Origin: Stromatinia cepivora
Taxonomy: Eukaryota > Ascomycota > Leotiomycetes > Helotiales > Sclerotiniaceae
Direction: 5' to 3'
Assembly (NCBI GenBank): GCA_014898415.1
Contig: RCTD01000001.1
Location: 868,001-932,000 of the forward strand
Length of the DNA stretch: 64,000 nt
Position 1 is the stretch's first letter; every line of letters begins with the position of its first letter. The position numbers were made by a program, and so were the translations under genes. The notes below the pieces were generated by a model. That model searched no databases. It worked only from the letters and a program-made list of their open reading frames with translations, and had not been told where the DNA came from. Positions 54,181 to 64,000 of the stretch are shown here, piece after piece.

Positions 54181-54597
54181 TTTATATACGATACTAACCA
54201 CACTTTTGTTTCAAATAGAATTCTGGCGGAATGCTTGAAGCCTCTTCCCTTTGACGGAATGCCAGGCCTCTTCCAAAAAAAAAGATGAAACTAGCCCTTG
54301 TGTGATTCTAAAGGATCACTAATGAAAATTGATTGCAAACAATCGGATCCATATCGGAAAGTTAGCATATTAGCTGAAGACGAAACAGTATTTATATTGG
54401 AATCATCATTTTGTTGATACAAATTTAATAGTATTAAAGGATATAATATATTTTGTATTTCAAATTTCAAAAGAAAAAGCAAGTTAAAACCCCCCCCCTT
54501 TTATTATTTACCGAATTTACAGGATCATTGAAATCGACAAGGACGTCGATCCAAAAAGGGAAACATCAATATCCCCTACTCATCATATTAAAAAGTA

Positions 54598-55015
54598 TAC
54601 CGAACCCAAACCAAAAGCATACCGAATTTGAATCGAAAGCATACCGAATCCAAATCGAAAACATACCAAATCGAAAGCATACCAAATCGAAAGCATACCA
54701 AATCGAAAGCATACCAAATCGAAAGCATACCAAATCGAAAACATACCAAATCGAAAACATACCAAACCCAAACCAAAAGCATACCGAATTTGAATCAAAA
54801 GCATACCGAATCCGAATCGAAAGCATACCAAATCGAAAGCATACCAAATCGAAAACATACCAAATCGAAAGCATACCAAATCGAAAGCATACCGAATCCA
54901 AATCGAAAGCATACCGAATCCAAATCGAAAACATACCGAATCCAAATCGAAAACATACCGAATCCGAATCGAAAGTATACCTATCGAAATCGTACCGAAA
55001 TCGTACCGAAATCGA
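54598..55015 (+). repeat. Tandem array 3, 16- and 22-base units
   Basis: ATACCAAATCGAAAGC (16 bases) and ATACCGAATCCAAATCGAAAGC-type (22 bases) units alternate in blocks. A larger block of about 180 bases (starting at ACCCAAACCAAAAGC, 54,603 and 54,767) is itself duplicated. Units contain no stop in several frames, so long frames on both strands here are not evidence of genes. Confidence 0.93.
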
Positions 55016-55253
55016 ATTGAAAGTGGATCGAAAATGAATATATATACAGAGGTTTTTAAATGATATTGAAAAGTTTTCAAAAAAATGAAAATACTGAACT
55101 TCATAAAATAAAGATGTAAGCATTATAATTTCATTATTGAAGGAATTATTATGAATTTAATCGTTGTATAGAATTCTCCATTGGAGTTTCAGCTCGGCCG
55201 ACTATTGTAGAGTAAGAATAAAGGAATTAGAAGAATTAAAAGGATTTCGATGG

Positions 55254-55535
55254 ATCTACGAAAAGGCATACCACACAATACAATGGTTTTACGAAAAAGC
55301 CTACAACACAATACAATGGTTTTACGAAAAGGCATACAATACAATACAATGGTTTTACGAAAAGGCATACAACACAATACAATGGTTTTACAAAAAGGTA
55401 TACAACACAATATCAATGGTTCTACGAAAAGGCATACAACACAATATCGATGGTTCTACGAAAAGGCATACAATACAATATCGATGGATCTACAATGGTT
55501 TCACGAAAAGGCATACAATATAACATCGAATGATA
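55254..55535 (+). repeat. Tandem array 4, 33-34-base units
   Basis: About eight units of TACGAAAAGGCATACAACAC followed by AATACAATGGTTT. The first five are 33 bases and so repeat in frame (YEKAYNTIQWF); later ones are 34 bases with ATATCGATGG. Confidence 0.93.
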
Positions 55536-55615
55536 TTGGTTTTGATTGGATATTTCAACTTAAATGGTTTCATTTCAAAGGCTTTCGAGAACGAAAGCCT
55601 CGGAAAAGAGGGCTC

Positions 55616-55806
55616 TATTACAAACCTCAACTACGAAACTAGGACTAACCGAAAGCGGGCCGAATTATACACTAGTTTGAAGAGTTTTCACCTATATAAA
55701 GGGGAATTCTTCAATACCATTAAAAGAAAGTAATGAAAAGTCTTAATTCTAAATCCAAACCTATTGTTATTCGAATATTAACCGATTCTTTGCTGTGATT
55801 CTCACA
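55616..55806 (+). repeat. Right LTR of the tandem-array element
   Basis: 191 bases, aligned with 53,019-53,210. Confidence 0.9.
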
Positions 55807-60694: not shown

Positions 60695-60886
60695 GATTTA
60701 AAAAAATTAAAAAAAAATTAAAAAAAAATTAAAAAAAAATTAAAAAACTAAAAAATTAAAAAAAATTTAAAAAATTTAAAAAAATTAAAAAAATTAAAAA
60801 AATTAAAAAAATTAAAAAAATTAAAAAAATTAAAAAAATTAAAAAAATTAAAAAAATTAAAAAAATTAAAAAAATTAAAAAAATTT
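60695..60886 (+). repeat. (AATTAAAAA)n minisatellite
   Basis: Low-complexity array of A-runs separated by TT, unit 9-11 bases, regular in its second half (AAAAAAATT, 9 bases). Confidence 0.95.
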
Positions 60887-61079: not shown

Positions 61080-61800
61080 ATATTCAGGATGCTTATCCCA
61101 GAATCTTAAGAGGGGAGGGGGATCGTATTATATAAATATAATTTAACAGGTACGATTCTAATGAGAATATATAGTTTCATTTGTACGATAATGATAAATC
61201 AACCCTCTTCACACCTACAAGAATAACCCTTTCATCGCGCTCAGAATAACCTTCGATTATGATTTTGTCGGGTTGATCTGGCGGCACTTTGTTACCAGGG
61301 TTCAATCTATGATATCAGCGATTACAGGTCTCAGAACCCTCCCCTTTGATCACTAAACCTTCCCAAGGTCTCCAAGGTATTCTCAACCATTCCCATTTCT
61401 GTATTCCGTACCCCTCGAAACAACTAGTGCCACAGGCGATAAAGTGTTTGTAAGCTATTACGGTAAAGACTGTGAATATATTTTCTTCTGATCGATTACA
61501 AAATCTGCAAGGAAAAGAAACGGCAAGGAGTGAATTGTGTAAAAAACCATAACCATCAGAACTCGACAACCACCGACATGTTTTGCCACAAGAAGCTCTT
61601 TCACATCATTATCAAAACCAATCAGTCCCTTTACATCCATGGCTAACCATCATCAGGAAAGTTGTTTCTCCAGTATCACAGCCGGCAGGATGGTGGATTA
61701 CGATCTATGCTAGAAGCTCAGGGGCAGCCTCAGCAGATCGCTTCTCCCTTAAGGGACCTTAAAATACTTTCTGTACGGACTTTCAAATCCTTTCTGAAAG
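61080..61800 (-). pseudogene. Decayed gene in base-balanced island, unknown product
   Basis: About 700 bases with gene-like composition. On the minus strand two frames overlap: one from an ATG at 61,640 (MDVKGLIGFDNDVKELLVAK, then a hydrophobic FYTIHSLPFLFLADFVI), and one at 61,315-61,569 (ACGTSCFEGYGIQKWEWLRI, PWRPWEGLVIKGEGSETC). Further down (61,200-61,300) LNPGNKVPPDQPDKIIIEGY reads well. A CTTGCAG near 61,505 and GTAATC near 61,318 could be splice sites, but I could not build a full model. Family not recognised; a broken or spliced secreted protein is possible. Confidence 0.35.
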
Positions 61801-62342: not shown

Positions 62343-62757
62343 TTAGGGCTCCTCCCATCTCTTCTCTGCCCAAGGAGGAGCCTCACGTCTCTCCTCCCAT
62401 TTCTTCTCTGCCCAAGGACTAGCATCCCGCTTTTCTTCCCATCTCTTCTCTGCCCAAGGAGCAGCCTCACGTTTCTGGGCCCAACGTTTCTCTTCCCAGC
62501 GCTTATCCTCCCATGGCCCAGCCTCTCTCTTTCCCTCCCAACGCTTATCGCTCCACGGAGCACTTTGAATAATACATATCGATACAAAATCCTAACAGAA
62601 AGGACATTTAAACTTACGCTTCAGCCTCTGGGGCACTATGTCTGTGTTAGTATGATGGTATCCAATATTTGGAAAGACTAAACTCTTACGCAACGGGAGC
62701 AGCAATAGCTAGGCCCAACATAGCTATGCTAGCTGTGAGGAAGTATGTTATCTTCAT
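62343..62757 (-). CDS. Secreted Kex2-type repeat peptide precursor (KEP-like)
   Basis: 103-residue precursor from three exons, complement of 62690..62757, 62618..62641 and 62343..62562. Exon 1 encodes a signal peptide (MKITYFLTASIAMLGLAIAA, cleavage likely near residue 20), followed by a short pro-region (PVAHSAPEAEA). Exon 3 encodes five repeats with consensus (E/D)A-x-PW-x-(E/D)-K-(R/K)-W-E-x-(K/R)-R, 14 residues each (42 bases), plus one inserted WAQKR between repeats 2 and 3. Every unit carries two dibasic sites, and EA follows KR as in STE13-trimmed alpha-factor precursors. Expected secretory processing gives short acidic Trp peptides such as APWAE, GPWED and WEE. No cysteine. The architecture matches fungal Kex2-processed repeat proteins (pheromone and RiPP precursors), but the core is not one I know. 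The frame is undamaged although AT-rich DNA lies on both sides. Gene product class is inferred. Confidence 0.85.
62563..62617 (-). other. Intron 2 of the repeat-peptide gene (55 bases)
   Basis: Donor GTAAGT, acceptor CAAAG at 62,563. It is preceded by the same GC in phase 2 as intron 1, and splicing joins exactly in frame with the repeats. The branch site is weak. The nearer TTAG acceptor would give an implausible 26-base intron. Confidence 0.75.
62642..62689 (-). other. Intron 1 of the repeat-peptide gene (48 bases)
   Basis: Donor GTAAGA, perfect branch sequence TACTAAC and acceptor CAG. Without splicing the frame stops at GCG TAA. Phase 2. Confidence 0.88.
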
Positions 62758-62779: not shown

Positions 62780-63307
62780 TCTTGGAGGAGGTTGATCGGT
62801 TAATAATAGTGAGTAATATAATAATATTATTATTTACTATTATTATAGTGGAAGACTTAGTTATATAGCTTAAAAGGGTGATCGAATATATAATGATTGA
62901 AGTCAAAATATGAGTGTATTGAATATTGAATTTATTTTGCTTGTTTTTCGAAGAATTCTTTGAAGAAAATCTTCTTATTTATAATATTTGATAAGATTCC
63001 ATGAAATTCTATAATATTCTATGATTATAAATAAGATCGATTTAAATCGAATCTTATAGAATTATTTTATATAATGAAATGAAATAGTAACCAATAATAT
63101 TTAAACTTAGAAATGAGAAAGTTCTATATGTTTCCATCACATTCTATTCCATTATAAATCATTCTAATATGATACATGATCAAAATTTTATATAATAATA
63201 AAATTTAATAATATTAAATTATATTATTAATATATCACATGATCATATAACCATCGGTTCGGTTAATATTATTAAATGATTTAATAAACTTATTAGAAAT
63301 TCTTATA
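62780..63307 (-). mobile_element. Element M, copy 2, in leader of the precursor gene
   Basis: 528 bases, reverse complement of 34,866-35,404, with TSD GAGAT at 62,775-62,779 and 63,308-63,312. It lies 17 bases upstream of the gene's TSD-adjacent ATG segment, between the ATG (62,757) and a typical fungal leader. Its strand places its TATA-like CTATATAA (about 62,862-62,869) in the sense of the gene. Confidence 0.88.
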
Positions 63308-63312
63308 GAGAT

Positions 63313-63425
63313 GATTTTGAGAAATGTAGTTTGGAGGTGATCGTCCTTGAGTTGAGAGAATGTTTGGATTGTTGAGATGTGATTATTGGGGTGTCAATAA
63401 GGAACGAAGGACCTTTATATATCTC
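63313..63425 (-). promoter_or_regulatory. Native leader and TATA box of the precursor gene
   Basis: Read on the minus strand, 63,412-63,421 is TATATAAAGG, a good TATA box. It is followed by a C/A/T-rich leader (CACATCTCAACAATCCAAAC, CTCTCAACTCAAGG) that continues, if the inserted element is removed, into GAAACCAACAAGTCATC before the ATG. This looks like an intact fungal core promoter and 5' UTR. Confidence 0.65.
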
Positions 63426-64000
63426 TTTTCGTCATCATAAGACGCCCTAATGCGGGGAGAGGCTCACACTTCACAAGGTTGAAAAGCATATCGGCGACTT
63501 CCCCGCTCTTGCTTGTCGATGCCATCGGTACATGCTATCTTGATGAGGAGTAATTACACCGTGTTAATCGCCGACTGTAACCTGCTTACAGACTATGAAT
63601 TTGCATAATACCTGCTCATGAGCCATCCTACCCCTATCATTTGATCTTCGCTAGAAGAATGCCCGAGTGGGTTGAATTCTTGAGATGAGTAGTTCCGCAA
63701 ACGAATACACAATCCCCCAATGTTTGGGGACCAATGTAAGATTATGCCAATATCCGAAGAAGCTAACTTTTATTTGTTCCCTGAAGGCTGAAGTCAAGCG
63801 GCATACTTCAAGCTTTTTCCGGATGATGTTCGTTTTCGAGTGAATAGCATCAGATTACATGGAACTCGCTAATTGCTAAGTACTTTCATCCACTGGTGAC
63901 GAGCGAAGCCTCACTCCGGGGCATCTACCGAATTTGTGCATATGGACATCAAAGCGGGTAGTGATTACCATTATCTACTGGTGCTGCCTCTCATCTTATT
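63426..64000. other. Base-balanced upstream region, no gene seen
   Basis: No open frame worth reporting. CCCCGC near 63,451-63,456 region and a CCAAT-containing small inverted repeat (CCCCCAATGTTTGGGG, 63,715-63,730) could be regulatory, but this is only a suggestion. Confidence 0.35.

What the first reader, a model, noticed from the sequence alone, without database searches (positions are those of the whole stretch)
62343..62757. Candidate undescribed Kex2-processed repeat peptide gene
Directly visible: three exons that splice in frame (both donors GC|GTAAG in phase 2, a perfect TACTAAC branch in intron 1), a signal peptide, and five 14-residue repeats (E/D)A-x-PW-x-(E/D)-KR-WEx-KR. Established: in fungi, secreted precursors cut by Kex2 at dibasic sites and trimmed at XA dipeptides include alpha-type pheromones and cyclic RiPPs (dikaritins). 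Inference: the released peptides would be short Trp-containing acids such as APWAE and WEE. They lack the cysteines and GQ core of ascomycete alpha pheromones. No automatic frame call on one exon reveals this gene because the introns hide the start, and the overlapping single-exon frames on both strands are shadows.
Basis: partly seen in the sequence, partly recalled or inferred. Interest (0 to 1): 0.88.

Follow-up and report, generated by a model that had tools for sequence, protein, structure and literature searches.

The report
Fungal gene for secreted tryptophan tripeptides
A small fungal gene looks built to release many copies of tiny tryptophan-plus-acid peptides, cut out and trimmed by the same layout of cutting sites as the fungus's own mating pheromone, and it lies beside a damaged-looking gene of a peptide-modifying enzyme family.

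Summary
A 101-residue, three-exon precursor is encoded at 62757-62343 (minus strand): signal-peptide-like start, 11 W-x-x cores between dibasic sites. Codon patterns among repeats and one probable relative in Pseudomassariella vexata support this frame. It is a Kex2-processed repeat protein (KEP); no second copy was found in its genome. The predicted peptides need correcting: in front of Trp, each spacer is an unbroken run of XA/XP dipeptides (5 of 5 here, 2 of 2 in the relative), the rule also kept by the 12 counted cores of this genome's alpha-pheromone gene. Ste13-type trimming would leave tripeptides (WAE, WEE, WED) rather than APWAE. It lacks the pheromone core. Outside the window, 2.07 kb away and divergent, lies a UstYa/DUF3328 gene with both HXXHC motifs, but its frame appears broken. 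Best reading: an alpha-pheromone-style KEP releasing linear Trp tripeptides, possibly once UstYa-modified. Rivals: an active dikaritin-type RiPP precursor, a pheromone relic, or a surface repeat protein. New variant of a known kind; nothing here shows expression or product.

The parts
62690..62757 (-). exon 1: start codon, signal-peptide-like sequence (MKITYFLTASIAMLGLAIA) and start of the XA/XP run
   Evidence: splicing script; six-frame translation; signal peptide judged by eye, no predictor run
62636..62689 (-). intron 1, 54 bases, GTAAGA...TACTAAC...TAG
62618..62635 (-). exon 2, 18-base micro-exon (part of the first XA/XP spacer)
62563..62617 (-). intron 2, 55 bases, GTAAGT...AAG, branch site unclear
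62343..62562 (-). exon 3: 11 W-x-x cores separated by KR/KK/RR, five of them preceded by XA/XP dipeptides (the first run begins in exons 1-2); stop codon included
   Evidence: 42-base tandem repeat at 62349-62476

Best explanation
The gene encodes a secreted Kex2-processed repeat protein with alpha-pheromone-type architecture but a different payload. After entry into the secretory pathway, Kex2 would cut after KR/KK/RR, Kex1 would remove the basic residues, and a Ste13-type dipeptidyl aminopeptidase would strip the in-phase XA/XP dipeptides up to Trp. That would release about 11 tripeptides per precursor: WSD, WEG, WED, WEE, WAQ, WAE, WEE, WAE, WEE, WAE and a last WEE(P). The peptides most likely leave the cell as small linear, signal-like peptides with a role other than mating. 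The adjacent UstYa gene suggests that they are, or once were, substrates of oxidative modification. Shown: gene anatomy, frame, repeat and spacer phasing, no second copy found, the probable relative, the neighbour. Inferred: splicing in vivo, every cleavage, the product, the function.
For: Frame and repeats. Dipeptide phasing: the 14 dipeptides in 5 of 5 spacers are XA or XP and end exactly at W; the same holds in 2 of 2 spacers of P0001 and in 12 of 12 counted cores of the genome's WCGRPGQPC pheromone gene (limits in the full report). P0001 (P. vexata) has a signal-like start, the identical heptamer APWSDKR, and eight tandem W-[DE]-[DE] cores, of which seven end in KR and the last runs on to KAKK (pair comparison, 41% identity over 100 columns). 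The genome has a proprotein-convertase P domain and a DPPIV_N protein. A separate pheromone gene and a STE2 gene exist. Ste13 signatures are described for alpha pheromones and some other KEPs, and as absent from the precursors of toxic cyclic tetrapeptides and of epichloecyclins (PMC6339444, Results and Discussion part 1).
Against: No transcript, protein or peptide evidence. Four of 11 cores have Ala at position 2, so WA is itself an XA dipeptide and WAE/WAQ could be trimmed further; my script stops at W by rule. P0001 scored only E = 0.3 against the 5.8-billion-protein database, and short repeats can converge. P0001's second core (WSDKEKR) and its last (WDEKAKK) do not fit a plain tripeptide. 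A UstYa neighbour is unusual for pheromone-like KEPs: in one survey 98.6% of 216 putative fungal pheromones lack one (PMC7329392). No signal-peptide predictor was run, and the signal cut used was set by hand.
Confidence: 0.55

Rival explanations
1. A dikaritin-type RiPP precursor: the Trp cores are cross-linked or oxidised by the adjacent UstYa protein or by another UstYa protein in trans before release.
For: A UstYa gene 2.07 kb from the precursor start, divergent. With 31 UstYa loci in 55.67 Mb, one within 5 kb of a fixed point is expected by chance about 0.6% of the time, assuming even spread. Both HXXHC motifs are present. 22% of 7878 KEPs have such a neighbour within 15 genes, most often the next gene (PMC7329392).
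Against: The neighbour's reading frame seems broken before the first HXXHC motif. The only tyrosinase match on this contig is about 370 kb away. Pfam on 7 chosen open frames of the 30 kb to the right named only the histidine kinase and a MUN-domain protein; the remaining frames there were not scanned. Ste13 signatures are reported absent from precursors of cyclic tetrapeptide toxins. There is no Tyr after the signal region.
Confidence: 0.27
2. A structural or surface repeat peptide (repellent-type, like Rep1): the short peptides or the whole protein coat the cell wall.
For: Some KEPs have such roles (Rep1, mentioned in PMC6339444). The repeats are uniform in composition.
Against: Tripeptides seem too short to assemble as Rep1 peptides do (inference). 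Exact dipeptide phasing has no evident reason in a structural protein; the Ste13 signature is said to be absent from Rep1.
Confidence: 0.08
3. A degenerate relic of an alpha-pheromone precursor: a duplicate that lost its cysteine core and now makes nothing of use.
For: Same spacer rule as the C28 pheromone gene. It sits at the edge of an AT-rich block of about 53 kb, beside a broken-looking gene.
Against: The frame is open over 11 cores and differences among copies are mostly at third positions, which points to constraint. The P. vexata sequence keeps W-acid-acid cores. The intron layout differs from the pheromone gene, where an intron splits the first core.
Confidence: 0.1

Closest known systems
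Kex2-processed repeat proteins (KEPs) as surveyed by Le Marquer 2019 (PMC6339444) and Umemura 2020 (PMC7329392)
   Same: signal-like start, tandem cores between KR/KK/RR sites, short precursor
   Different: cores here predicted as tripeptides; Umemura's survey asked for at least three repeats of 8 residues or more between Kex2 sites, which would likely pass over such units; Le Marquer's reported motif sizes begin at three residues
Ascomycete alpha-pheromone precursors (this genome's own: C28:153905-154847, 12 uninterrupted WCGRPGQPC cores)
   Same: Kex2 sites plus in-phase XA/XP spacers ending at a Trp
   Different: no Cys, no PGQPC core; separate gene; different intron layout
P. vexata BCR38DRAFT_522593 (P0001, uncharacterised)
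   Same: signal-like start, APWSDKR heptamer, tandem W-acid-acid cores, XP runs before Trp
   Different: no spacers between the later cores, non-repeat tail; weak database score (E = 0.3)
Dikaritins (ustiloxins, phomopsins, asperipin-2a) and UstYa/DUF3328 oxidases
   Same: Kex2-type multi-core precursor next to a UstYa gene
   Different: no Tyr in the cores, Ste13 signature present, neighbour frame appears broken, no further cluster genes recognised in what was scanned
Basidiomycete KEPs with Ste13 signature and Trp-ending cores (Pleurotus and Lentinula -AADW; PMC9769878, passages)
   Same: short Trp peptides near acidic residues, with Ste13-type spacers in the Pleurotus precursors
   Different: Trp is at the C-terminus there and at the N-terminus here; other phylum; no sequence relation tested

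Membership tests
KEP | signal peptide | tested here: inconclusive
   hydrophobic start with AIA|AP seen by eye; no predictor available
KEP | at least three similar repeats separated by KR/RR/KK, at least four fragments (Le Marquer definition) | tested here: met
   11 W-start fragments; criterion. Their pipeline itself was not run. I file the gene as a KEP under this definition
KEP, Umemura survey cut-off | at least three repeats of 8 residues or more between Kex2 sites | tested here: not met
   3 or 7 residues between sites apart from the leader fragment; criterion. I treat this as a survey threshold, not as what makes a KEP
Alpha-type mating pheromone | Ste13-type XA/XP spacers after Kex2 sites | tested here: met
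   4 of 4 spacers that follow a Kex2 site, plus the one after the signal region; the other 6 cores follow the site directly
Alpha-type mating pheromone | conserved pheromone core (two Cys in this lineage type) | tested here: not met
   no Cys in the 101 residues; a WCGRPGQPC gene found at C28
Alpha-type mating pheromone | activates Ste2 | not testable with these tools
   one STE2 match, at C5
Dikaritin RiPP cluster | multi-core Kex2-type precursor | tested here: met
Dikaritin RiPP cluster | UstYa/DUF3328 gene nearby | tested here: met
   C1:933697-933828, 32.3 bits; last-exon piece at 37 bits (cut-off 25)
Dikaritin RiPP cluster | intact UstYa frame with HXXHC...HXXHC | tested here: inconclusive
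   both motifs present, the second across a probable intron; the family-like stretch upstream ends at L026:1409 in one frame while HQLHC starts at L026:1403 in another, so no intron fits between. The motif frame is itself open from L026:1190, and an assembly error is not excluded
Dikaritin RiPP cluster | cross-linked or otherwise modified product | not testable with these tools
   needs mass spectrometry

The most novel reading that the evidence does not exclude
A lineage of KEPs has turned the alpha-pheromone processing scheme to making Trp-acid tripeptides that a UstYa-type copper enzyme modifies. They would be among the smallest dikaritin cores, with Trp in place of Tyr, and a link between pheromone and RiPP precursors.
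Probability: 0.15. Interest if true: 0.75.

Novelty: new variant of a known kind. Interest (0 to 1): 0.47.

Why it matters
If right, fungi make a secreted tripeptide class that a survey with a minimum repeat length of 8 residues would likely pass over, using the pheromone maturation route for a product that lacks the pheromone core. The mixture of a pheromone-type Ste13 signature with a UstYa neighbour bears on the question whether fungal RiPPs arose from pheromone precursors, raised in PMC9233826 (passage). The predicted products can be checked directly by mass.

Tried and rejected
Tried without result: MF_alpha_N (PF05436) search of the genome, silent also in the 14 control genomes, so uninformative. 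Pfam on the precursor and on P0001: no family. The profile search (317 candidates) returned P0001, which was in the query, and P0002, a low-complexity piece on a 747-base contig. A long composite query for longer relatives scored only the 7,999 candidates sharing most words and gave 7 hits up to E = 10. By eye, three are low-complexity pieces (P0003, P0004, P0005), three are cysteine-core pheromone precursors (P0006-P0008), and P0009 looks unrelated; none of the 7 is a longer Trp-tripeptide KEP. Dropped: membership in the mating pheromones, because there is no Cys/PGQ core. The flank 63300-64000 is unique in the genome. The flank 61150-61800 shares short end pieces with 36 other listed places, repeat-like. 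Literature: seven searches (listings of 20 of 62, 9 of 9, 12 of 12, 20 of 129, 20 of 81, 13 of 13 and 12 of 41 papers) showed no listed title or abstract start naming Trp tripeptide KEPs; supplementary tables of the KEP surveys could not be read.

Full report
What is there. The window lies at C1:868001-932000 of a 55.67-Mb genome in 48 contigs. On the minus strand, exons 62757-62690, 62635-62618 and 62562-62343 splice in frame to a 101-residue protein: MKITYFLTASIAMLGLAIAAPVAAPEAEAAPWSDKRWEGKREAGPWEDKRWEEKRWAQKREAAPWAEKRWEEKRDASPWAEKKWEERREAPPWAEKRWEEP. The host is taken as a filamentous ascomycete from its STE2 gene and a WCGRPGQPC pheromone gene; the species was not identified.

Is it real. 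In exon 3 there are 10 W-x-x-[KR][KR] modules plus a last WEE. Shuffling the codons 20,000 times gave a mean of 0.8 and a maximum of 5. Over the nine-codon core of the five repeat units, differences fall 10/15/39 on codon positions 1/2/3. The synonymous fraction is 0.50 in this frame and 0.09, 0.25 (6 pairs with stops left out), 0.07, 0.26 and 0.04 in the other five. These copies are few and related, so the test shows the frame, not a rate. No second copy was found in the genome: one search returned only this gene's exons 3 and 1, and of 6 matches of a tandem W-x-x-KR pattern 4 are in this gene, with 2 matches of the backwards control.

A relative. Of 64 candidates, one scored: P0001 of Pseudomassariella vexata, 94 residues, E = 0.3 for a database of 5.8 billion. 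Its sequence shares the start MK...IAAP, the heptamer APWSDKR, and eight tandem W-[DE]-[DE] cores (seven closed by KR, the last followed by KAKK). The pairwise comparison gives 54.7 bits and 41% identity over 100 columns, a figure inflated by repeats. I take it as a probable relative; convergence is not excluded.

What is released. One search splits the precursor at dibasic sites and strips leading XA or XP dipeptides. The five spacers read AP-VA-AP-EA-EA-AP, EA-GP, EA-AP, DA-SP and EA-PP, and each ends exactly at Trp; the other six cores follow the dibasic site directly. The two spacers of P0001 (AP-AP and DP-AP-KP) do the same. So do the 12 counted cores of the genome's own alpha-pheromone gene, for example DA-EP before WCGRPGQPC. 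By analogy with Ste13 processing, described for alpha pheromones (PMC6339444; PMC9769878 passages), the mature N-terminus is Trp and the cores are tripeptides. Limits of this count: the signal cuts were set by hand; the script stops at W by rule, and four of 11 cores have Ala second (WAE three times, WAQ once), so a peptidase could in principle go on; of the 12 pheromone cores, 11 spacers follow a dibasic site, while the first of the second exon follows a single Arg and was cut by hand at EA-EA; a further pheromone core that an intron splits was not counted.

Processing enzymes. A proprotein-convertase P domain is at C28 and a DPPIV_N protein at C23. Their presence is expected in such a fungus and does not single out this substrate.

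Not the known pheromone. A gene with 12 uninterrupted cysteine cores is at C28:153905-154847, and the one STE2 match is at C5. The candidate has no cysteine.

The neighbour. PF11807 (UstYa) gave 52 matches in the genome, 31 loci when merged at 5 kb. One is at C1:933697-933828; its likely start is L026:827, that is C1:932827, 2,070 bases from the precursor's start and pointing away from it. A UstYa locus within 5 kb of a fixed point is expected about 0.6% of the time, assuming even spread. Pieces read apart show the second motif region at 37 bits (cut-off 25) and the HQLHC region at 22 bits (below cut-off); the three upstream pieces match no UstYa profile. Both HXXHC motifs are there, the second across a probable intron. 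Two such motifs are given as the mark of these enzymes, and as a copper centre in one of them (PMC12048977, passage; PMC12435403, abstract). The stretch upstream of HQLHC that resembles the family (ENQDLYLIN, like ENKGIYLLN of L018, a weak match of E 0.38) ends at L026:1409 in one frame, while HQLHC starts at L026:1403 in another, so no intron fits between. The motif frame is open from L026:1190, so a shorter or altered product is not excluded. Further right, a histidine kinase with HAMP repeats follows. Pfam was run on only 7 chosen frames of the 30 kb to the right and one at the left end of the window. The only tyrosinase match on this contig is about 370 kb away.

Reading the conflict. Ste13 signatures are said to be absent from precursors of cyclic tetrapeptide toxins (PMC6339444, Discussion part 1), which favours linear peptides. 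A close UstYa gene is rare beside putative pheromones (3 of 216) and commoner beside KEPs as a whole (22%; PMC7329392), which favours a RiPP. The broken-looking frame tips me to linear products today, with a possible modified past.

Why it may have been passed over. Umemura's survey required at least three repeats of 8 residues or more between Kex2 sites. Here fragments between sites are 3 or 7 residues, apart from the leader. Le Marquer's pipeline had no such limit, but its tables could not be read here.

Papers: PMC7329392 (abstract, sections 6, 7, 8, 13), PMC6339444 (abstract, Results, Discussion part 1, pipeline section), PMC9769878 (abstract, section 7, passages), PMC9233826 and PMC12048977 (passages), PMC12435403 (abstract). 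All others: search listings only. The -3,-1 rule for signal cleavage, residue masses and general Kex2/Kex1/Ste13 knowledge beyond these papers are recalled.

Noticed in passing
window 8001-61000: About 53 kb of very AT-rich DNA (GC 0.10-0.34 per kb) inside a 4.5-Mb contig. TpA/ApT stays below 1, so that simple RIP index does not mark it; could be a centromere-like or decayed repeat block.
   Followed up: partly
window 60698-60885: 20 copies of a 9-base unit TTAAAAAAA.
   Followed up: no
window 54447-55156 and 55161-55642: Tandem-repeat frames: KHTESKSKAYRI type open on both strands, and FYEKAYNTIQW type in two plus-strand frames; probably satellite-like repeats, not genes.
   Followed up: no
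L041 (C28:153905-154847): Alpha-pheromone precursor gene with 12 uninterrupted WCGRPGQPC cores, a further first core split by an intron, and an NMVGGACFEAKR stretch between two groups of cores.
   Followed up: partly
L026:2476-2931: Repeats of the HPSPPLIHLHPSSIST type open in three frames between the UstYa gene and the histidine kinase.
   Followed up: no
C21:502731-506784 of the genome: Four UstYa matches close together: a candidate RiPP or cyclic-peptide cluster elsewhere in this genome.
   Followed up: no
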